Shown here in pieces: positions 19,653 to 29,475 of a stretch of DNA of 64,000 bases (the first letter of the stretch is position 1; each line of letters opens with the position of its first letter). Source of the stretch: Candidatus Tumulicola scandinaviensis. GTDB taxonomy: Bacteria; Vulcanimicrobiota; Vulcanimicrobiia; Vulcanimicrobiales; Vulcanimicrobiaceae. The notes under the pieces were generated by a model, which made no database searches, was not told the origin of the DNA, and saw only the letters and a program-made list of their open reading frames with translations. A program made the position numbers and the translations under genes. The DNA is taken from the NCBI GenBank assembly GCA_003140835.1, contig PLLA01000091.1, forward strand, positions 29,455 through 93,454, given 5' to 3'.

Positions 19653-22202
19653 TCAAACCACTAAACGGAGCGCAAGCTCGACGGCCTCATCGTCGCTCAT
19701 CTCTGCGCCGCTGCTCATGAATTCCGTGACTTCGCCCAGTCCTAACGCATCAACTAAACAAGCCATCGCACGGTCAACGTCCCTTTGGTCGGTTGGCCAC
19801 CGAAGAGCCCCCTCGGCCGTCAGGCGGGCATCCGCGTATCCAAGGAGTTGCACAGCGCACGTTCGCTCTCCGCGTGCGCTTTCCGGACTCTCGTTCGGAG
19901 CCAGTGCCGCGACGGCCGCCAAACGACGCACGGCGTGGATAGCGTTCGCTGGTGCATCAGCTACGGTCTGGAGCGCCACATTCAGCGACTCGAAAGCGCG
20001 AGTACGTGCCTCGTCAAAGCGATCGAGCGCAGTTAAGAATGTCGCCTCATTGGATAGACACTCAGCGAGATAAGCGTGTCGCCAGGCCCGAAGCACCGGA
20101 AGTACGCGCGCAGAGCGTTTAAGGGCGGAGTGTACGTCGCCGAGCCCAAACTCTTGTTCGGCCAAATTCATCCCGCAGATTGCAGCGCCTAGTCCGTCAC
20201 CTTCGGTTTGGAACATCCGCAAGGCTTCGACATGGAGCGAGCGCCCTTCGGAATAGTCTCCCTTCGCGAGATGCACGTTTCCGAGCGTGTCTTTCACGAG
20301 AGCCAGAAGCCGGCGATCATCAAGCTCGCCCACGGATATGCTAGCCTGTTGGGCCAGCGCCTCCGCTTCATCAACGCGTCCCAATTTTAGCAGGATCATG
20401 GCCGCACTCAGTTGGCTAGCTGCGATCTCCGATGAGTCCCCGAACTCGCACAGAATTGCCGTCTCGCGACGGTTTGCCGCCAGCGCTCGATCGAACTCGT
20501 GACACTGTTCCAGGTGACCAGCTAGCCGGCGCTCGAGCAAGGCGATCGTCTTAGGTGACGTGCTAGCGCTCGAGGCATCCAGCGCAATCTGCAACCAGCG
20601 CAACGGCTCTGCGATTTGCGATCCCCAGATCCTCGTGGAGACGAGACGCTGTCCCAGCGCTACATTTCCGCGTGCGCCAAACGACCATGCTGCGGCAGCA
20701 CTGAAGTTCGCCTGCTCGCGCTCTACTGCATCAAGAAAGGCGCTGACGTCATCAAGGTTACGTGAGTTGTTGGCCGAAAGGCGCAGTTTCTCGAAGCGAA
20801 GGGCAAGTTCCAAATATGCTGCCGCGTGGCGGCCGGCAATCATCTCTGTTTCACCGCGCCTACGCAGCTTGTCTCGGCCATACTGCCGTGAAGACTCCAA
20901 GAGCCGGTAGCGCGTTTCTTCTCCAATCTCTTCCGAGACGACCAGTGACTTGTCGACGAGCGACGCGAGCAGTTTCAATATGTCTGCTTCCTCAATGCGC
21001 TCGCCCGCACATACTGCAATTACCGTCTCCAGCGTGCACGCTCCCGCGAACGCCGACAGTCGATCGAACAAGAGCTGTTCGAGTGGAAGGAGCAACTCGT
21101 AGCTCCAAGACAGCGTCGCCTCCATCGTTTGCTGCCGTGACGGCGCGGTGCGATCGCCCTCGCTGAGGATGCGAAACCGATCGTCCAGCAGGCGCGCCAA
21201 TTGGCGCGGGGCAAAAAGTTTCGCGCGCGCTGCTGCCAATTCGATCGCTAGCGGGATTCCGTCCAGCCTTCTGCAGATCTCGCCTACGTGCCCCGCGTTC
21301 TCATCGCTGAGGGTGAAGACGACACCGGACCCTTCCGCCCGATCCACGAACAGGGCGACCGCGGGGTAATGGGCTGCATCAAGCGCGTTCGCAAGGGGCT
21401 TTGCAGGATACGCCAACGGCGGCACGCGGTACGCCCATTCGCCGGCGACCTTCAAGGTCTCCTGACTGGTCGCCAGCACATGCACGCCCTTGCACTCGCG
21501 GAGAATGGCAAAGGCGACGCGCCACACTTCATCGATCACGTGCTCGCAGTTGTCCAAGACGAGTAGGAGCCGTCGACGCTTTAGGGAGTCGACGACTGTC
21601 TGAAGCAACTGTTGCTTCGGTGTCTCCCGCACGCCGAGGGCCCGCGCGATAGCACCGACGACTTGGCTGGTATCGCCGACCGGCGCTAACTCCGCCAGTC
21701 TCACGCCGTCCGGCCAGGTTGAGATGAGATTTTCTGCCACTTGGAGCGCGACGCGAGTCTTGCCGACACCGCCGACTCCCACCAGCGTGACGAGCCTGCG
21801 GGACCCGACCAAGGCGGCGACCTCGGCTACGACCTCGTCCCGCCCAACGAGGCTTGAGAGTTGTACCGGCAGCGTCGCACTGCTCTCTGCCGCAGGCCCA
21901 GGAAGCAGTTGCATGCGCGGGCGCTGTGGGCGCGCGGCAGCGGCAGCCATCAGTTCGCTTCGGTCGTCCGCCGACAACCGCAGAGCTTCGGCCAGCCGCA
22001 GCACGGTATCGCGGTGAGGGGCATGGCGCGTTCCTCGCTCGAGCGTGCTAACCGTCGCGACGCCGATGCGCGCGCGCTCCGCCAAGCCTTCCTGCGAAAG
22101 CTCGGCCCTAATGCGATAGCGCCTAAGGGCCGCTCCAAAGGCCGCTTGGGTGCCGTCCGCAATCAGATTCAGCTCGGCGTCCGTCGCGCTAGGAGTTTGC
22201 AT
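19653..22202 (-). CDS. XRE HTH - NB-ARC ATPase - TPR regulator (STAND type)
   Basis: The 849-residue protein begins with an XRE-type HTH (about 20-75): FGAALRRYRIRAELSQEGLA ... GVATVSTLERGTRHAPHRDT. An NB-ARC/AAA ATPase follows (about 110-400) with Walker A LVGVGGVGKTRVALQ, Walker B RRLLLVLDNCEH and LPLAIELAAARAKL. The remainder is TPR-like helices (roughly 480-849). There is no C-terminal LuxR HTH. STAND proteins of this build are signal-gated switches acting as transcription regulators or, in some cases, defence proteins. The upstream element at 22233-22271 lies 31 bases before the start. No obvious target gene is adjacent; the ubiquitin-like operon lies 1.4 kb away in the same direction. 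Confidence 0.85.
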   Translation of the reverse strand: MQTPSATDAELNLIADGTQAAFGAALRRYRIRAELSQEGLAERARIGVATVSTLERGTRHAPHRDTVLRLAEALRLSADDRSELMAAAAARPQRPRMQLLPGPAAESSATLPVQLSSLVGRDEVVAEVAALVGSRRLVTLVGVGGVGKTRVALQVAENLISTWPDGVRLAELAPVGDTSQVVGAIARALGVRETPKQQLLQTVVDSLKRRRLLLVLDNCEHVIDEVWRVAFAILRECKGVHVLATSQETLKVAGEWAYRVPPLAYPAKPLANALDAAHYPAVALFVDRAEGSGVVFTLSDENAGHVGEICRRLDGIPLAIELAAARAKLFAPRQLARLLDDRFRILSEGDRTAPSRQQTMEATLSWSYELLLPLEQLLFDRLSAFAGACTLETVIAVCAGERIEEADILKLLASLVDKSLVVSEEIGEETRYRLLESSRQYGRDKLRRRGETEMIAGRHAAAYLELALRFEKLRLSANNSRNLDDVSAFLDAVEREQANFSAAAAWSFGARGNVALGQRLVSTRIWGSQIAEPLRWLQIALDASSASTSPKTIALLERRLAGHLEQCHEFDRALAANRRETAILCEFGDSSEIAASQLSAAMILLKLGRVDEAEALAQQASISVGELDDRRLLALVKDTLGNVHLAKGDYSEGRSLHVEALRMFQTEGDGLGAAICGMNLAEQEFGLGDVHSALKRSARVLPVLRAWRHAYLAECLSNEATFLTALDRFDEARTRAFESLNVALQTVADAPANAIHAVRRLAAVAALAPNESPESARGERTCAVQLLGYADARLTAEGALRWPTDQRDVDRAMACLVDALGLGEVTEFMSSGAEMSDDEAVELALRLVV

Positions 22203-22232
22203 GACTCAGGCGGCCCCGTCCTCATTTTCCGA

Positions 22233-22271
22233 AAATGTACGTGTAAATTGTACGGATCGGATCTGGTCGCC
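22233..22271 (-). promoter_or_regulatory. Upstream element, copy B (direct repeat CGTACA-N7-CGTACA)
   Basis: On the minus strand this reads CGTACA-ATTTACA-CGTACA followed by TTTTC, 31-69 bases before the ATG of the XRE-NB-ARC gene. Apart from two central bases, a one-base gap and one later substitution it matches copy A at 17702-17740. It is a plausible binding site for a dimeric regulator. Confidence 0.5.
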
Positions 22272-22458
22272 GACACCCGGTAGAAGCGTAGAATTGCGCA
22301 ATGCCTCCGGCAGGTCCAGAAATGGCTTATTCTTGTATTTCCTTTCGGTACTTCCTTATAGAAAGCCGTCAAAGATGCGGCGGCCAGTGGGGAGCCGGCG
22401 GTGAACGACATCGCCTGCGTTCCTCTTTGGCCAGGCGCTTGGCATCTTTGCGACGGCT

Positions 22459-22760
22459 GTGCTCACCGGTTGTAGCAGCCGGCTCGGCACCTTCCGCAGA
22501 CCTCTCCGTAGCCGATGCAGCAAGCCGCAGCGCCATCCGGGCGGGAAGCCGGTGGGCACGCTAACAGGCTTAGATGCGCCAACCGTGAGGGCTCCGACAA
22601 GGCCGGTGATGTGGCGCCGAAGGCGGAACGACCCCATGGAGGCGTTGAGCGATTCGGGCGATTACCCTCGGGCTGCTCCGTCGATCCGACGACCGGAAAT
22701 CTCGCCGCCGCCAGTGATCAGACGCCGAGCGCCGGGGCCGCCCTAGAGAAGTCCGAAGCT
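22459..22760 (+). pseudogene. Decayed beta-propeller lipoprotein of the GCSVDPTTGN type
   Basis: Fragments in two frames match the paralogues at 29492 and 39118: GGKPVGTLTGLDAPT in one frame, then HGGVERFGRLPSGCSVDPTT and GNLAAASDQTPSAG in another. These correspond to the SYPAGKP.GTLTGF and YGCSVDPTTGNLAV segments of the intact copies. Several frameshifts and a missing C-terminal half make it a clear relic. A possible lipobox (LTGCSS) is seen at the 5' end. Confidence 0.55.
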
Positions 22761-23641
22761 TGTCTTTCGGTAGCCCAATCGGATAGGCGTCTTGACGGGC
22801 CTTGCCCGATTTATTGGCCGAGGGGAGCGCTGAATCTTGACAATTGTGCGATCTTGGTCGGCCAACGCCAAAAGATCCGGAGAGTAGTTCTGTGACAACT
22901 TCGTACAACACCGGACCGGACGCATCCTACGAGTACAACGCCGAGAGTACTCGTGCAACGGGCGTGCAACAGAGGGGTTCGAAATGGATCGCCCCGGACA
23001 GTGTTGGCCAGGAACCAGGCACCGCAAAAAGCTCTATATTCTCGGACTTTTCAGTAGCCACACGGAACGGCTAGGACCGCTGGAAGGGAGTTCGAATCCC
23101 GCGGGGCTATCCGGTTCGTCCTCTTTTCACGGGCATTTCGATACGCATCAGCGGCTCGTGTAACATTTTTGCCTAATTCGAAGCCGCGCCACTTTCCTGC
23201 GGCCTTAACAGACCGGTGTGTCGAAGGGACGTCTGAGCAGATCCCCGATCCGGGTTCGACAAGCATTTCTGCGGCACCTGGAACATAGAAACTCGTGGAC
23301 CGGAAGATGCCGGGAAAGCGCGCCGTTCATTCGGACTTTGGCGTTTTATGTGGTTTTTTGGCGCGTCGTTTTTTGCGCCGAAATCACTTCGCATAAGATG
23401 CGTGTCAAGCTCCTAAGGGTCACTTCCGGCAGCTCCCCAGGCTCCTTCCCGGTAGACCTGCGGCGGCAGAAATTCAGCCTTGTTTTGGTCGGAGGTTGCG
23501 CCCCAGGAGGCAGTTATCTTTCCGGGCAGGTGAGGACGAAAGCGGACCGGCTTCCTAAGATCCGCCCGCTATATTACCACGTAGGAGGCCACTATTAACT
23601 CGCCTAGATGCTCGCATACTCCGTCTGTTGCAGATTCAGTC
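22761..23641. other. Long stretch without a gene; one hairpin and a tRNA-like T-arm
   Basis: I see no protein family on either strand. There is a perfect hairpin at 22929-22954. Near 23085-23101 a GAGTTCGAATCCC segment looks like a tRNA T-arm, but its stem pairs poorly and no D-arm or anticodon arm can be built. The stretch separates the propeller relic from the ubiquitin-like operon. Confidence 0.4.
22929..22954. repeat. Perfect 8-bp hairpin
   Basis: ACGAGTAC and GTACTCGT form an 8-bp perfect stem around a 10-base loop. No T-tract follows, so it is not an obvious terminator. Confidence 0.4.
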
Positions 23642-24046
23642 CTATCGTTGGTTTCGGTTGGACGCAAAAATGCGCTGTATTATCCGTAGTGCGCGCCGCC
23701 AGAACGGCATTGGCGCGTGGGCTCTTGGGTTGTCGTGTTTTCGGGCAAGGGCAATCATTTTGTCGGTGTACACACCAGCCCACCGCACGTGGCCACTCAC
23801 AATGAAGTAGTGCGATTTGCACGGGAACGAGCCGTTTCCGATCGATGGGCTAAGCGAGGGGCGTCCGTCTATCACTTTTAGCGTCCAGCGGTCCGGACGC
23901 AGGCCAGTAACTACTTCGAACCCGCATCCGCAAGCACAGAGATGCGAAGCGATTTCAAAGGCAGCTGAATGATAAAGAACGCCTGGCTGCAATTGCTCTG
24001 GAATCGCCCTCACCGCAGTGTAAACGAACGCGTCAGTTCGCTTCAC
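23642..24046 (-). CDS. DUF6527 protein of a ubiquitin-like operon
   Basis: The protein of about 134 residues has the DUF6527 landmarks: an N-terminal IPEQLQPGVLYHSAAFEIAS, then HLCACGCGFEVVTGL, then WTLKVIDGRPSLSPSIGNGS with FPCKSHYFIVSGHVRWAG. The HLCACGCG cysteines and the SIGN.SFPC.SHY block are the family core, and they suggest a metal site or a catalytic centre. In this family's usual setting it sits beside Ubl and E1/E2 genes, and it has been proposed to act on Ubl conjugates. The start is taken as GTG 24046, overlapping the E1 gene by 14 bases. The last 25 or so residues are basic and not part of the core. Confidence 0.8.
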   Translation of the reverse strand: MKRTDAFVYTAVRAIPEQLQPGVLYHSAAFEIASHLCACGCGFEVVTGLRPDRWTLKVIDGRPSLSPSIGNGSFPCKSHYFIVSGHVRWAGVYTDKMIALARKHDNPRAHAPMPFWRRALRIIQRIFASNRNQR

Positions 24047-25235
24047 GGCAACCACCGTTATCGATGCGGTTGAAGTCAACGGTGTAGACGCTAGAATATT
24101 CCGCGTCCGGCCCATGGTAAAAACCGAGATATTTCTTCCATCGAACGACGGCGAGAGCTGCATTCAGAGCATTCAAGTCGGCGATTTGGATGTTCAACGC
24201 GTAATCATCCTCAACGTCTACGAACGAAATAGCGTGGCGGGCCGATCGGCAATCTTCGACGCTTAAGGTCGTGCGCATCAAACCGCCAAGAGTGCGGTCC
24301 CCCACCGAGACACCCATCCCGACGTCGATGAACGGCTTCTTCAGCGCCGTCAGACCTTCGACAAGCCGACGCTTCGATGCGGCCTTGTCTATACACACGA
24401 AGGCGAAATCCACCTGGTTGAAGTCCGGCGGCAATTCGGATAGGTAGACGGGGTGCGCTACGATGTGCAGATGCATGGCCGAATATCGCTTGTGAAAATA
24501 TTCGACTTTGTAGTGTGGTGGTACGGCGAAAACATCGTCGGAAGCGGCGGCGCCGGGGGCGCGGAATGCGTTGTGCTGCGAGAAGCGATCCCCGTCATAG
24601 ATCCGGATTTCTTTGACCGGAGTCTTGGAAATGAGGTCAAGAACGTATGAGCCAGTGCCGCCGACCCCGATAATCGCAATGACGTGTCCCTCGAGTTTTT
24701 GGCTCACCGCGGTGATCCCGGCACGCGTCGAAGCCGTATCGCGATATGCAAAAACCGACGCCTCGTCGTCGTAATCGCGCACCCGACCGGTTAGTGGGGT
24801 CGCCTCAGGGTCGATACGCCGCGCATACTTCCCGACCACCTCAACGTAAGACGTAACGAGATCATAATAGTCGTCATAGCTGCCAGCCTGGTTCACTTTC
24901 GGAGATTTGTACGATAGGTGGTACTGCGCATCTAGATCGCCGGCAAAGCGGTGGACACCGGGAGTGTTTTGCCCAACCAACAATAACGGTTCACCTGAAT
25001 TCTTGTAGGGAAAGCCGCCAGCAAAGTACGCTTGATGATTCTGAGGTCTGCCGACTACGGAATTCGCGATCTGGACTATCGGTATGATTAGTATGCCATA
25101 TGCTACTTGGACATCCGCATTAACGTATGGGACGTTCCTTACCACCAGAAAGTTGGATGGGTGAACCTGGATCTCGTACTTTTCGCTCCGCAGTCGCGCT
25201 AGATCAGGGCTATGAGCGATTACCAGGCTCGACAA
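24033..25235 (-). CDS. E2-like/E1 (ThiF) fusion of a bacterial ubiquitin-like system
   Basis: The 400-residue protein has two parts. Residues 1-150 resemble the Prok-E2_E type E2-like domain (FLVVRNVPYVNADVQVAYGI, then NHQAYFAGGFPYKNSGEPLL, YDDYYDLVTSYVEVVGKYAR). Residues 175-400 are a ThiF/E1 adenylation domain with the ATP loop GVGGTGS (190-196), then IRIYDGDRFSQHNAFRAPGA. C281 and C329 are candidate thioester cysteines. It should activate the Ubl encoded just upstream by adenylating its C-terminus. The start is uncertain: TTG 25235 overlaps the Ubl stop by 26 bases, and no ATG is available nearby. Confidence 0.82.
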   Translation of the reverse strand: MSSLVIAHSPDLARLRSEKYEIQVHPSNFLVVRNVPYVNADVQVAYGILIIPIVQIANSVVGRPQNHQAYFAGGFPYKNSGEPLLLVGQNTPGVHRFAGDLDAQYHLSYKSPKVNQAGSYDDYYDLVTSYVEVVGKYARRIDPEATPLTGRVRDYDDEASVFAYRDTASTRAGITAVSQKLEGHVIAIIGVGGTGSYVLDLISKTPVKEIRIYDGDRFSQHNAFRAPGAAASDDVFAVPPHYKVEYFHKRYSAMHLHIVAHPVYLSELPPDFNQVDFAFVCIDKAASKRRLVEGLTALKKPFIDVGMGVSVGDRTLGGLMRTTLSVEDCRSARHAISFVDVEDDYALNIQIADLNALNAALAVVRWKKYLGFYHGPDAEYSSVYTVDFNRIDNGGCREAN

Positions 25236-25470
25236 CGAATTCCGTTCCGTTTTTTACCGTTACGGTTTCACCCTCGATGAGATCCCCTTCGTGCTTAGGT
25301 GCTACCGCGTGACGATATGTCACGATATACTCCATACCTTCCTTAAGCGGAGGCAGGTTAGGTGCGAGCGCCACGACTTCTTTATACGTAAGGACGTCGT
25401 GCTCAACCGTCCGTTCCCGCGTGTTGACGATAATATGAAAATCGCGATCATGCTCAGTGCTCGTACTCAA
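25210..25470 (-). CDS. Ubiquitin-like protein (multi-ubiquitin domain type)
   Basis: This 86-residue single-domain protein fits the Multi_ubiq family: FHIIVNTRERTVEHDVLTYK, then EVVALAPNLPPLKEGMEYIV, then VTYRHAVAPKHEGDLIEGET and VTVKNGTEFVVEPGNRS at the C-terminus. The beta-grasp pattern, the VTYR strand and the G.L.EG..V.VK.GT.F.V ending are all present. There is one domain, not a polyubiquitin-like chain. Translation appears to start at TTG 25470. It is the first gene of a three-gene overlapping operon with the E2-E1 fusion and DUF6527. The tail after the last strand is short (about seven residues), and where it is cut or conjugated cannot be told. Confidence 0.8.
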   Translation of the reverse strand: MSTSTEHDRDFHIIVNTRERTVEHDVLTYKEVVALAPNLPPLKEGMEYIVTYRHAVAPKHEGDLIEGETVTVKNGTEFVVEPGNRS

Positions 25471-26140
25471 CCCAACCCCCCGATGCGTCGCTCGGCCTAG
25501 GCCTCAGTGGCGTGCCGCCGAACACCTGTTCGGTTTGTCACCTTTTCATCCTGCCCGGTTGGAGGTGAGGGCCGCTTGCGCGCGCGCAGTGCCTCTGTCC
25601 TTGCCTGCCCGCGGAATCTCTTTACTCAGCCGACGAGAAGCCTAGGCTCGAAGGTCCGCCTCTTCGGCGGCCGTAACAGGCGAACGCGCCACAGCCCGTT
25701 CTTTTTCCGGCCAGAGCTCGTCAGCCCCTATTCTCGAACGGGTGATTCCCAATGTCAGGTCCTTTCCGCAGGCTGACACGATGGCGTCGCAACTTCCGGC
25801 TTCCTGGGAGCCGAGACCCTGTTGGCTGTGCGATCGCCAGCCGGTGAGGGGTACCGGCTTCACCGACGTGGCATTTTTGCGGCGACTGGGTGACGTCCGC
25901 CTTGCCATCACTTCGGCCTTCGCGCGTGTATGACCCGATCTTGCCCTTTTCCCGTGGCCTGGACCTAGATAAGCCCTCTGCGGTTGCCATTCGGTTGCCA
26001 CACGCGCTAAACGCGCCTGTTACTAGGCAAGCACGCACGGCACGGATCGGCACCGAAAAACCCCAAAAAAACGATACGGGGTAGCACCGTTCGATATACA
26101 ACGTTAATCCGCAACCCTAGACGGGCCAGCTCCAGGAGGC
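25471..26140. other. Stretch upstream of the Ubl operon without a recognisable gene
   Basis: Open frames exist on both strands, but none has family signals or a sensible start. It presumably holds the promoter of the Ubl operon near 25480-25600, which I cannot point to. The right end meets the tRNA-Arg remnant. Confidence 0.35.
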
Positions 26141-26141
26141 T

Positions 26142-26181
26142 TTAGGAGTCCCCTGCTCTATCCAGTTTGAGCTACGGGCGC
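26142..26181 (-). pseudogene. 5' half of a tRNA-Arg(CCU) gene
   Basis: On the minus strand the first 40 bases read as a normal tRNA: acceptor GCGCCCG, TA, D-stem GCTC...GAGC around AAACTGGATA, and an anticodon loop CTCCTAA (anticodon CCT, 26144-26146). Beyond the loop the expected stem, T-arm (GTTCGAATC) and acceptor CGGGCGC are all absent. The break at the anticodon loop is where many phage and island integrases cut tRNA genes. The lost 3' half was not found elsewhere in the window. Confidence 0.6.
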
Positions 26182-26606
26182 GCACGGCCTTGCCTTATTT
26201 GATGCGGGTTGCGCCGCATCTGCTCTCTTGCGATCCCCGGACGCCTATCACGGGCGCCATTTGGGCGCCATGCAAGAAAACCCGGGTTCCGAGCACTTCA
26301 CTTTTCACGCGCCAGCCGCCTAGCCTTCGCTTGGGCCAACGCGTCACCGATACTCGTCACCCCCCGCTCCTTAGCTCCGGTAACCGCGTGGCTGGTCCGA
26401 AACCGTGCGGAGGTCGTTGCCAGTCGCCAGGCTAGTCGTTCCGACAAAGGTACCGCGGCGACACCCACTCGTCCGAGAGCCAACGCAGAAGGTTACTCAC
26501 GGGTGGCTCTTGGGCAGGTCAACCGTCGGGCACGGCTCATACTGTTCTGTTCAATTTTCGTTTCAGCGTTGACGCTCCGACTTCTGCGCATTCGAGAGCG
26601 CGAACG

Positions 26607-26792
26607 TCAAAAGCGGCTAAGCGACGACGCGCGTGTTAGGTTTGGATTGCGTCTCGCCATCGCGATGGCAAGCCGCATGTTGTGATCGTGAAATATCATC
26701 TCGCCTGAGCCAGAAGATGCCTGGACAGTGCGAACCGACTCCGCAGCCGCGGCGATAGCGGCAAGCCCCGCAACGAAGGTCTGTCGTTTCAT
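26607..26792 (-). pseudogene. Signal-peptide stub of a lost secreted protein
   Basis: The frame opens with a good export signal (MKRQTFVAGLAAIAAAAESV ... QASSG) and then runs into 30 residues of no recognisable character before a stop. It is probably the 5' end of a secreted or Tat-type protein whose body was deleted. A true 61-residue secreted peptide cannot be excluded. Confidence 0.35.
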
Positions 26793-26891
26793 TCGTGCGT
26801 CTTCGCTCGGCAGCGTACGGGTTCATTGCAACGATGCGGGTGGTGGGAGGTCTCCGCAGTACTGAAAATGCAATGAAATACGCTCGAGGCC

Positions 26892-26936
26892 GTCCTTCGA
26901 CTGCGCGCGGACGGCGCTCCGCTCAGGATTACAAAG
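26892..26936 (+). repeat. Dispersed REP-like repeat, copy 1
   Basis: The repeat reads GTCCTTCGACTGCGCG...CGCTCCGCTCAGGATTACAAAG. It shares the CCTTCGACTGCGC and GCTCCGCTCAGGAT arms with copies near 31200, 44527 and 58391. The arms are partly complementary, so it can fold into a hairpin. All copies lie between or at the ends of genes. Confidence 0.65.
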
Positions 26937-26974
26937 TGGCTCCCCTGAGGATAACAAAAATGTGAGGAAGCGAC

Positions 26975-27251: not shown

Positions 27252-28112
27252 TTGGTGGTGGTCGGGCTCACGCTCGTCGCCGCCCTCGTGTTGGCTATGC
27301 CGCGGCATCGCGACGGCTTACCCAAAGCGGTCGAAGTCGTCATCGGGTTCGGGACAAACTTCTTCGATACGCTGGGTATTGGGTCGTTCGCGCCGACCGT
27401 CTCGCTGTTCAAGCTGTTCAAGTTGGTACCCGACGAGCGGATTCCCGGAACGCTAAACGTCGGTCATGCGCTGCCGACCGTCGTCGAGGCGGGAATCTTC
27501 ATCGCCATCGTTATGGTCGATCCCAAAACGCTAGTCTTGTTCATCCTCGCCGCAATCGCAGGCGCGTGGTTGGGCGCCGGCGTGGTCGCAAAATGGCCGC
27601 GGCGCTTCGTCCAGATCGGCATGGGAGCAGCGTTGCTCGTCGCTGCGACGCTCTTCCTCATGAGCAACCTCCATCTGTTCCCGGCCGGCGGCACCGCGGT
27701 TGCGCTGGAAGGCGGGCGGTTGTGGTTCGGCGTGGCCGTGAACTTCTGCTTGGGCGCCCTGATGACGCTTGGCATCGGGCTCTACGCGCCGTGCTTGATT
27801 CTGGTCAGTCTGCTCGGCATGAACCCGCTCGCAGCCTTCCCGATCATGACGGGGTCGTGCGCGTTTCTGATGCCGGTTGCGGGTTTACGCTTCATTCGCT
27901 TCGATGCGTTTTCGATGAGCGCCGCCCTCGGCCTCACGATCGGCGGCATTCCGGGCGTGCTCATCGCGGCGTTCTTCGTTAAGTCGTTGCCCTTGGTGGC
28001 GGTGCGATGGCTGGTCGTGATCGTCGTCATTTACGCCGCCGTCGCCATGCTTCGCTCCGCGGCTTCGAAGGTGCCGGACTCCGAACCCACCGAGTATGCG
28101 GCCAGCCCTTAG
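27252..28112 (+). CDS. TauE/SafE-type membrane permease
   Basis: The protein of about 286 residues has eight membrane helices in the TauE/SafE pattern, including GFGTNFFDTLGIGSFAPTVS and GALMTLGIGLYAPCLILVSL near the start of each half, where the family has its two-fold repeat. Such proteins export sulfite, sulfoacetate or other organosulfur anions. The start is odd: no ATG, GTG or TTG follows the in-frame stop at 27210 until TTG 27252, which lies within the first helix. An ATT at 27228 would give a full helix (IHTVILLGLVVVGL). The last 17 bases overlap the phosphoesterase gene that follows. Confidence 0.82.
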   Translation: MVVVGLTLVAALVLAMPRHRDGLPKAVEVVIGFGTNFFDTLGIGSFAPTVSLFKLFKLVPDERIPGTLNVGHALPTVVEAGIFIAIVMVDPKTLVLFILAAIAGAWLGAGVVAKWPRRFVQIGMGAALLVAATLFLMSNLHLFPAGGTAVALEGGRLWFGVAVNFCLGALMTLGIGLYAPCLILVSLLGMNPLAAFPIMTGSCAFLMPVAGLRFIRFDAFSMSAALGLTIGGIPGVLIAAFFVKSLPLVAVRWLVVIVVIYAAVAMLRSAASKVPDSEPTEYAASP

Positions 28113-29475
28113 CCCGCAATGCTTGGTTGCCGCGGCAATCGCGTTCGTGCTAGCAGGATGCGGAGGAGGTTCGAGTTCTTCGGGCGGCGGCTCGGTCGCG
28201 ATCCCCACCGGCGTGCCGTCGGGGCCGCCCGGGCACGGTTATCCCAATATTCATCACGTCGTCATCATCGTTCAGGAAAACCGCACGGTCGATAATCTCT
28301 TTCCGGGATTTCCGGGTGCGGACACGCAGGCGTACGGCTTCAACGGGAGCGGAACAAAAATTCCCCTGATGCCCGTTCCCCTTGAAGCGCCGTGGGATTT
28401 TCGGCACGACTCCACGAGTTTTTTCAACGCTTGCAACGGTCGCGGCACGTATCCCGGAACCGACTGCCGCATGGACGGCTTCGACGCCGAGTACTGGTCC
28501 TGCGGAAAGCCCGGGCATCCGCCCTGTCCGAACACGGACCCTCCGTATAGTTACGTGCCGCCCTCCGAGACGAAGCCGTACTTCTTCATTGGCGAACACT
28601 ACGTATTTGCCGACGCGATGTTCCCTTCGAACTTCGACTCGAGCAGCTTCGTCTCGCACCAATATATCATCGCGGCTCAGGCCGCTTCGACGGTCAACTT
28701 TCCGGTGGGTCCTTGGGGTTGCGAAGGCGGCGCAGGTTCCCGCATTCAAACGCTGACGCGGCAACGGACGATCGGAGGCAACGTCGAGCCGTGTTTCAAT
28801 CACGCGACGCTCGGCGACGAGTTGGACAACGCGGGTGTGTCGTGGCGGTACTACACGTCGCCCGTAAACGACGGTAGCGGCGGCGTGTGGAGCGCGTATC
28901 AAGCCATCAAACACATCTACGACGGCCCCGATTGGAACAGGAACGTCGTTACGCCGCAGACGCAGTTCTTTCACGACGTCTCAAACGGGGCGCTGCCGGC
29001 GGTCAGCTGGGTAACGCCGACCTGTCAAAACTCCGATCACCCGAACTGCGGCTCGAAGACTGGCCCCGACTGGGTTGCGTCGCTCGTAAATGCGATCGGC
29101 GCATCGCAGTATTGGGATTCGACCGTCGTCTTCATCTTCTGGGATGACTACGGCGGTTGGTACGATCACGTTCCGCCCGAACTGGCCGATTACGATGGGC
29201 TGGGCATCCGGGTTCCGCTCTTGATCGTTTCGGCGTATGCAAAAACGGGCTGCGTATCGCACGTGCGCTACGAACACGGCACCATCCTGAAGTTCGTCGA
29301 AGACCAATGGGGGCTGCCGAGGCTTTCGGCCAGCGACGCGCGCGCCAACCCGATTGCGCCGAACTGCTTCGATTTCGCGGGAGCGCCGCGGCCTTTCGTG
29401 ACGATTCCCGCGCCGCACGGCAAGCAATACTTTCTCCGTCAGCCGCTCGACACGCGCCCACTCGATCCTGAGTAG
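28096..29475 (+). CDS. Phosphoesterase-family (phospholipase C/acid phosphatase type) lipoprotein
   Basis: The 459-residue exported protein has a lipobox (VLAGCGGG), a Ser/Gly linker and a full phosphoesterase domain (PF04185 type). Motifs seen are HHVVIIVQENRTVDNLFPGF, then SSSFVSHQYIIAAQAASTVN, then FIFWDDYGGWYDHVPPE and HVRYEHGTILKFVEDQWGLP. The E-N-R segment and the D-D-Y-G-G-W-Y-D-H segment hold the likely metal and phosphate ligands. It should cleave phosphodiesters or phosphomonoesters outside the inner membrane. It is one of four paralogues in this window (others at 42847, 44578 and 45921) and the only one next to a TauE-type permease. The exact substrate is unknown. Confidence 0.88.
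   Translation: MRPALSPQCLVAAAIAFVLAGCGGGSSSSGGGSVAIPTGVPSGPPGHGYPNIHHVVIIVQENRTVDNLFPGFPGADTQAYGFNGSGTKIPLMPVPLEAPWDFRHDSTSFFNACNGRGTYPGTDCRMDGFDAEYWSCGKPGHPPCPNTDPPYSYVPPSETKPYFFIGEHYVFADAMFPSNFDSSSFVSHQYIIAAQAASTVNFPVGPWGCEGGAGSRIQTLTRQRTIGGNVEPCFNHATLGDELDNAGVSWRYYTSPVNDGSGGVWSAYQAIKHIYDGPDWNRNVVTPQTQFFHDVSNGALPAVSWVTPTCQNSDHPNCGSKTGPDWVASLVNAIGASQYWDSTVVFIFWDDYGGWYDHVPPELADYDGLGIRVPLLIVSAYAKTGCVSHVRYEHGTILKFVEDQWGLPRLSASDARANPIAPNCFDFAGAPRPFVTIPAPHGKQYFLRQPLDTRPLDPE

What the first reader, a model, noticed from the sequence alone, without database searches (positions are those of the whole stretch)
23642..25470. Compact ubiquitin-like conjugation operon: Ubl, E2-E1 fusion, DUF6527
Three overlapping minus-strand genes encode a single multi-ubiquitin-type Ubl, a protein joining an E2-like domain to a ThiF/E1 domain, and a DUF6527 protein. 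Seen directly: the beta-grasp Ubl pattern, the E1 ATP loop at residues 190-196, and the DUF6527 CGCG and SIGN..FPC.SHY blocks. From family knowledge: these Pfam families co-occur in bacterial ubiquitin-like pathways linked to defence. Inference: this is a minimal functional module in an accessory region, perhaps using unusual TTG/GTG starts throughout.
Basis: partly seen in the sequence, partly recalled or inferred. Interest (0 to 1): 0.85.

Follow-up and report, generated by a model that had tools for sequence, protein, structure and literature searches.

The report
JAB-less bacterial ubiquitin-like conjugation operon
Three overlapping bacterial genes make a miniature ubiquitin-type tagging kit that is already known from many plasmids; the new details are that this version has no conserved catalytic cysteine and that its tag always ends in serine, fixed inside a gene overlap, where ubiquitin ends in glycine.

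Summary
At 23642-25470 (minus strand) three overlapping genes encode a single Multi_ubiq ubiquitin-like protein (E 4e-12), a DUF6791+ThiF/E1 fusion (1e-34; 5e-11) and a DUF6527 protein (2e-21). The start codons are TTG, TTG and GTG. The 'E2-like' label is not supported: the N-terminal domain matches DUF6791, no E2 family, and has no cysteine. The operon is a member of a known kind: type 6e of Iyer et al. 2006 (variant with 'domain X' in place of JAB), related to the recently characterised Bub pathways. It lies on more than 100 sequenced plasmids, in E. coli, and in 4 of 149 held genomes of its phylum. It has the lowest GC content in the window, so it is probably an acquired accessory module. 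New here: all 29 Ubls examined end in serine, encoded inside an overlap of fixed register with the E1 gene, and synonymous codon choice shows selection on that serine. No cysteine is conserved in the E1 fusion, while the adenylation residues are invariant. Most related operons (14 of 18) sit next to CapP-, CapW- or IrrE-UvrD-type genes; the window's copy does not. Most likely it is a self-contained, probably stress-induced Ubl-conjugation pathway that does not need JAB maturation. Phage defence is unproven.

The parts
25210..25470 (-). Ubl gene: single Multi_ubiq beta-grasp protein, 86 aa, TTG start, C-terminus ...VVEPGNRS
   Evidence: Pfam Multi_ubiq 4.4e-12; PDB 9cd2 multi-ubiquitin protein 7.6e-5
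25213..25215 (-). codon of the C-terminal serine of the Ubl, inside the overlap
   Evidence: Ser (TCN) in 29 of 29 Ubls, the window included, while the overlapping E1 residue 8 is R/L/H/P
25210..25235 (-). 26-nt overlap of the Ubl 3' end and the E1 5' end; fixed register in homologues
24033..25235 (-). DUF6791-ThiF (E1-like) fusion gene, 400 aa, TTG start
   Evidence: Pfam and NCBIfam PRK06153 family; fold match to UBA5, BubCD and MccB
24735..25208 (-). DUF6791 domain (residues 10-167), no cysteine; invariant P36, H67, G73, P76, S108, K110, Y130, A138
24315..24704 (-). ThiF/E1 adenylation domain (residues 178-307 of the fusion) with an intact ATP-binding and adenylation signature
23642..24046 (-). 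DUF6527 gene, 134 aa, GTG start, overlaps the E1 by 14 nt; C-terminal predicted helix
   Evidence: Pfam DUF6527 1.7e-21; model pLDDT 84
23777..23953 (-). DUF6527 core (residues 32-90): C37-x3-C41, PS68, C76-x2-H79
   Evidence: these residues invariant in 31 of 31 proteins, canonical Bub operons included

Best explanation
The operon encodes a self-contained ubiquitin-like conjugation pathway of the type-6e/Bub kind. The ThiF domain adenylates the C-terminal carboxylate of the 86-aa Ubl, which is born mature with a ...NRS tail and needs no JAB processing. The activated Ubl is then passed to target proteins without a conserved-cysteine thioester relay, either directly from the adenylate or through an oxygen nucleophile; the candidates are S108 of DUF6791 or Y345 of the E1. 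DUF6791 stands where BubD (JAB) stands in canonical Bub E1 proteins and probably does the E2's job of positioning Ubl and target. DUF6527, a small beta-rich protein with an invariant 3Cys/His site and invariant Ser68/His79, probably removes or edits the conjugates. The module spreads horizontally and is usually induced by DNA damage through neighbouring CapH/CapP- or CapW-type regulators; this copy has none. Shown: gene content, intact adenylation signature, absence of conserved Cys, selection on the terminal Ser, mobility and neighbours. Inferred: adenylation, transfer chemistry, roles of DUF6791 and DUF6527, stress or defence role.
For: Families above cut-off. In 26 fusions the G190-GG-G195 loop, D214, D216, R225, K243 and D283 are invariant and N222 is 24/26, while no cysteine column is conserved (C281 16/26; position 77 is C in 20/26 but Y in the window). 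Best folds are UBA5, Citrobacter BubCD and MccB, E 1e-8. Ubl terminal Ser 29/29, with synonymous-choice probability 3e-16 given E1 residues 7-8. Ubls of JAB-containing relatives instead carry TTEG or NNG at the Ubl end. E1 fusion in 114 plasmids and in 3 of 5,426 E. coli genomes. M78/ImmA or IrrE-UvrD genes in 12 of 18 and WYL in 2 of 18 neighbourhoods. DUF6527 also in canonical Bub operons and named 'ubiquitination-like system serine protease' in one RefSeq record. Bub operons beside CapW or CapH+CapP: 219 of 544 (PMC13373217).
Against: No biochemistry exists for this subtype in any paper that could be read. DUF6791 has no demonstrated E2 homology. A Ser C-terminus is unusual for an E1 substrate. 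The window copy lacks an adjacent regulator, and its TTG/GTG starts could mean low expression. The E1 model is moderate (pLDDT 74) with a low-confidence C-terminus.
Confidence: 0.6

Rival explanations
1. Sulfur-carrier system: the Ubl is a ThiS/MoaD-like protein that receives a thiocarboxylate after adenylation and feeds a biosynthetic or tRNA-thiolation reaction.
For: The ThiF fold is shared with ThiF/MoeB, and prokaryotic Ubl+E1 pairs are ancestrally sulfur carriers.
Against: No GG tail; no rhodanese, CxxC zinc motif or metabolic gene nearby; the genome has another ThiF at full strength (C46, E 1.7e-78); the operon is sporadic and mobile.
Confidence: 0.07
2. MccB-like chemistry: the E1 adenylates the C-terminus of a small protein to make a stable nucleotide-linked product rather than protein conjugates.
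For: MccB is among the closest folds and acts on a non-Gly C-terminal residue, an Asn (established knowledge of microcin C7); the Ubl ends in a non-Gly residue.
Against: The substrate is a folded Ubl; there is no exporter or tailoring gene; DUF6527 and regulators are shared with protein-conjugating Bub operons.
Confidence: 0.06
3. Dead or silent acquired copy: sequence remains intact but the module is not expressed in this host.
For: No adjacent Cap-type regulator, TTG/TTG/GTG starts, lowest GC in the window.
Against: All invariant residues are retained and no frame is broken; a relative in the phylum also uses TTG for the E1 (L020).
Confidence: 0.12
4. Canonical E2-E1 fusion with a catalytic cysteine, as first read.
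For: Predicted order of elements (helix, four strands, helix) at the N-terminus fits an E2/RWD fold.
Against: There is no cysteine in the N-terminal domain of this protein and none conserved in the family; no E2 profile match.
Confidence: 0.08

Closest known systems
Operon type 6e, 'domain X' variant (Iyer, Burroughs and Aravind 2006, PMC1779556)
   Same: Ubl with 1-3 repeats, E1 fused to an uncharacterised N-terminal domain in place of JAB, separate metal-binding protein with a C-x3-C ... signature, sporadic mobile distribution
   Different: Nothing essential. The signature printed there ends H-x2-C where DUF6527 shows C-x2-H; the N-terminal domain now has a Pfam name (DUF6791).
Bub (bacterial ubiquitination-like) pathways, BubA/BubB/BubCD (Ye et al. 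2026; Gong et al. 2025, both cited in PMC13373217)
   Same: Multi_ubiq Ubl, E1 domain (hhalign E 1e-16), DUF6527 partner, CapH/CapP-, CapW- or CapK/S-type neighbours
   Different: No Prok-E2_E and no JAB; the E1 carries DUF6791; the Ubl ends in Ser, not in a Gly tail that needs processing
Bil (BilABCD) antiphage conjugation
   Same: Ubl plus E1 logic
   Different: No E2 with catalytic Cys, no JAB deubiquitinase, different Ubl family
CBASS Cap2 E1-E2 fusion
   Same: A domain fused N-terminal to a ThiF domain; weak PADLOC E1-E2 hits on the ThiF part only
   Different: No CD-NTase substrate, no E2 cysteine, own Ubl present

Membership tests
Operon type 6e, X variant (Iyer 2006) | Ubl of the polyUbl family beside the E1 gene | tested here: met
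   Multi_ubiq 4.4e-12, adjacent and overlapping
Operon type 6e, X variant (Iyer 2006) | E1 fused to an N-terminal non-JAB domain with conserved charged residues | tested here: met
   DUF6791 1.4e-34, invariant H67 and K110
Operon type 6e, X variant (Iyer 2006) | Separate metal-binding protein with C-x3-C-x(35-38)-H/C pair | tested here: met
   C37-x3-C41-x34-C76-x2-H79, invariant 31/31; spacing and last pair differ slightly from the printed signature
Bub pathway (canonical BubA/BubB/BubCD) | E1 adenylation domain related to BubCD with adenylation residues | tested here: met
   PDB BubCD 3.9e-12 by profile, fold match, residues
Bub pathway (canonical BubA/BubB/BubCD) | Prok-E2_E (BubB) protein or domain | tested here: not met
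   no hit in the operon; DUF6791 profile versus Prok-E2_E alignment: probability 1%
Bub pathway (canonical BubA/BubB/BubCD) | JAB peptidase (BubD) fused to or beside the E1 | tested here: not met
   no Prok-JAB in the operon or at E<=1e-3 in the genome; a JAMM-like motif was seen only in an unlinked second Ubl operon
Bub pathway (canonical BubA/BubB/BubCD) | Covalent Ubl-protein conjugates | not testable with these tools
   needs biochemistry
Bub pathway (canonical BubA/BubB/BubCD) | CapW, CapH+CapP or CapK+CapS next to the operon (common, 219+59 of 544) | tested here: not met
   none beside the window operon; the only M78 peptidase found in the genome is on another contig; met in 14 of 18 homologous loci counting IrrE-UvrD fusions
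E2 (UBC) enzyme, for the N-terminal domain | conserved catalytic cysteine | tested here: not met
   no Cys in residues 1-167; no conserved Cys column
E2 (UBC) enzyme, for the N-terminal domain | E2 fold | tested here: inconclusive
   predicted helix-4 strands-helix order; no separate fold search of the domain was possible; no sequence match
Anti-phage defence system | protects cells from phage | not testable with these tools
   PMC13373217 says this is not demonstrated for Bub operons

The most novel reading that the evidence does not exclude
A ubiquitin-like conjugation subtype that works without any catalytic cysteine and without Ubl maturation: the Ubl is translated with its active C-terminus, an invariant serine fixed by an overlapping reading frame, and transfer runs directly from the adenylate or via an oxyester on DUF6791 Ser108 or E1 Tyr345, with DUF6527 as a hydrolase of a fold without a PDB match.
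Probability: 0.3. Interest if true: 0.6.

Novelty: new member of a known kind. Interest (0 to 1): 0.35.

Why it matters
The operon itself is a further member of a widespread but barely studied family, here in a phylum where it is rare. The comparative result gives a concrete, testable prediction for the whole family: a ubiquitin-like protein that ends in serine rather than glycine and an E1 with no conserved cysteine. If correct, ubiquitin-type conjugation can run on adenylate or oxyester chemistry with no thioester relay and no maturation protease. That bears on how such pathways began.

Tried and rejected
E2 identity of DUF6791: Pfam, hhalign against the Prok-E2_E proteins of related operons with JAB and reversed controls, and a PDB profile search gave nothing significant. 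DUF6527 fold: no PDB match at E<=0.001. Close homologues in phages: none in 50,697 records; four IMG/VR contigs carry the module, but whether these are truly viral was not tested. Empty-site comparison: the flanks have no syntenic counterpart in relatives. Defence genes in the window near the operon: only generic ABC-ATPase hits to PADLOC mad3/mad8, rejected. Y345 as the counterpart of BubCD Y370: the alignment is ambiguous, so kept as a candidate only. The Bub papers themselves (PMC12885553, PMC12145246) are not held, so it is unknown whether the Ser tail is already reported there.

Full report
Observation. The window holds three overlapping minus-strand genes: a Ubl (25210-25470, 86 aa), a 400-aa fusion (24033-25235) and a 134-aa protein (23642-24046). 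Pfam gives Multi_ubiq 4.4e-12, DUF6791 1.4e-34 plus ThiF 5.3e-11, and DUF6527 1.7e-21, all above curated cut-offs. NCBIfam places the fusion in the PRK06153 'hypothetical protein' group; PADLOC has only weak E1-E2 hits to the ThiF part. No ATG start is available to the Ubl or the E1, and the third gene's only upstream ATG would put 131 nt of it inside the E1, so TTG, TTG and GTG are the likely starts. Homologues overlap their Ubl and E1 genes at the same place.

Where it sits. The operon has the lowest GC (54.3%) of 311 same-size stretches of the window, whose overall GC is 61%. DUF6791 is present in 1 of 60 close relatives and 4 of 149 genomes of the phylum. Its neighbours are ordinary: HTH-NB-ARC regulator, TauE permease, phosphoesterase, NHL-repeat proteins, ABC transporters. 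I infer a horizontally acquired accessory module.

Family. tblastn finds 114 plasmids with the E1 fusion, mostly annotated 'ThiF family adenylyltransferase / multiubiquitin domain-containing protein', with 'DUF6527 family protein' next. It also occurs in 3 of 5,426 E. coli genomes, in Bacteroidota, Chloroflexota, Bacillota, Actinomycetota, Cyanobacteriota and others, and on four IMG/VR contigs. Gene order Ubl, E1, DUF6527 is kept in the loci read in full.

Prior knowledge. Iyer et al. 2006 (PMC1779556) described operon type 6e: polyUbl with one to three repeats, an E1 usually fused to JAB but in a subset fused to an uncharacterised N-terminal domain with conserved charged residues, and a C-x3-C... 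metal-binding protein. The window operon is that subset. Bub pathways (Ye et al. 2026; Gong et al. 2025) are the characterised JAB-containing relatives, known here through PMC13373217, PMC12687455 and PDB entries of Citrobacter BubCD, BubB and BubA. Canonical examples fetched here have Multi_ubiq, Prok-E2_E, JAB-ThiF and DUF6527.

E1. In 26 aligned fusions (28-54% identity to the window) the ATP loop, D214, D216, R225, K243 and D283 are invariant and N222 nearly so. From general knowledge of MoeB/E1 these are the adenylation residues. The model matches UBA5, BubCD, MccB and ThiF with E about 1e-8 to 1e-7. No cysteine is conserved: C281 is Ser or Ala in ten sequences, and position 77 is Cys in 20 but Tyr in the window. 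A thioester on a conserved cysteine is therefore unlikely. Invariant oxygen or basic candidates are H67, S108 and K110 in DUF6791 and Y345 before the last helix. PDB title 9eav shows that Y370 of BubCD was mutated for one complex; whether Y345 is its counterpart is unresolved.

Ubl tail. Every homologous Ubl that could be read ends in serine (TDKS, TNRS, TIQS, TGES, GNRS and similar), 29 of 29 with the window. Earlier repeats in multi-Ubl proteins do not carry this tail. The tail lies in the overlap with the E1 gene, whose register is fixed. The serine codon is always TCN; the overlapping E1 residue 8 is Arg, Leu, His or Pro. Given the E1 residues, the chance of that codon pattern by free synonymous choice is 3e-16, a naive figure that ignores relatedness and codon bias. 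So the serine appears to be selected in its own right. Ubls of JAB-containing relatives have TTEG, TTAG or NNG at the Ubl end, sometimes followed by a tail or a fused E2. This fits a mature-at-birth Ubl in the JAB-less type.

DUF6527. C37, G40, C41, P67, S68, C76 and H79 are invariant in 31 proteins from both operon types. The model (pLDDT 84) is eight strands plus C-terminal helices, with no PDB match at E<=0.001. One RefSeq record calls it 'ubiquitination-like system serine protease'. Inference: a small metal-stabilised hydrolase acting on Ubl conjugates, with Ser68/His79 as candidates.

Regulation. In 18 distinct annotated loci, an ImmA/IrrE (M78) gene lies beside the operon in 8, an M78-UvrD-PD-(D/E)XK fusion in 4 and a WYL protein in 2. 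A relative in the same phylum (L083) has a divergent HTH+M78 pair. CapP/CapH and CapW control immune operons in response to DNA damage (PMC13373217). No such gene is next to the window operon.

Verdict. The finding is real and mostly well named, but it is a further member of a known kind. The E2 label and the defence claim are not shown. The unusual features worth testing are the cysteine-free E1 fusion and the serine-terminated Ubl.

Noticed in passing
L082 (same genome, contig C86): 2676-4511, minus strand: A second, unlinked Ubl operon in this genome: Multi_ubiq Ubl (79 aa, tail GHGGAGR), a 110-aa protein, a 154-aa protein with an H-x-H-x7-S-x2-D JAMM-like motif, ThiF (323 aa), then a 205-aa protein, a 134-aa protein and an M78/IrrE peptidase.
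   Followed up: partly
L012:4792-8187, L015:3920-7312, L016:4798-8208, L031:7795-11205: Fusions of an IrrE/M78 peptidase to UvrD helicase and PD-(D/E)XK nuclease upstream of the Ubl gene, preceded by sigma-70-region-4-like or HTH-like small proteins: candidate new DNA-damage sensors for these operons.
   Followed up: partly
L023:3165-6502 and L026:3205-6646: PD-(D/E)XK nuclease plus an ~800-aa protein upstream of the operon in Bacteroidota; the L023 protein has a weak Piwi hit (4.5e-4).
   Followed up: no
window 19653-22202: 849-aa HTH_31 + NB-ARC/AAA + TPR protein 1.4 kb downstream of the operon; a 74% identical DNA copy in one relative (G014).
   Followed up: no
window 22203-23641 and 25471-26974: About 1.4 kb without convincing genes on both sides of the operon, possibly remnants of the insertion.
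   Followed up: no
window 28096-29475: Phosphoesterase (phospholipase C-like) gene belonging to a family with about ten copies in this genome.
   Followed up: no
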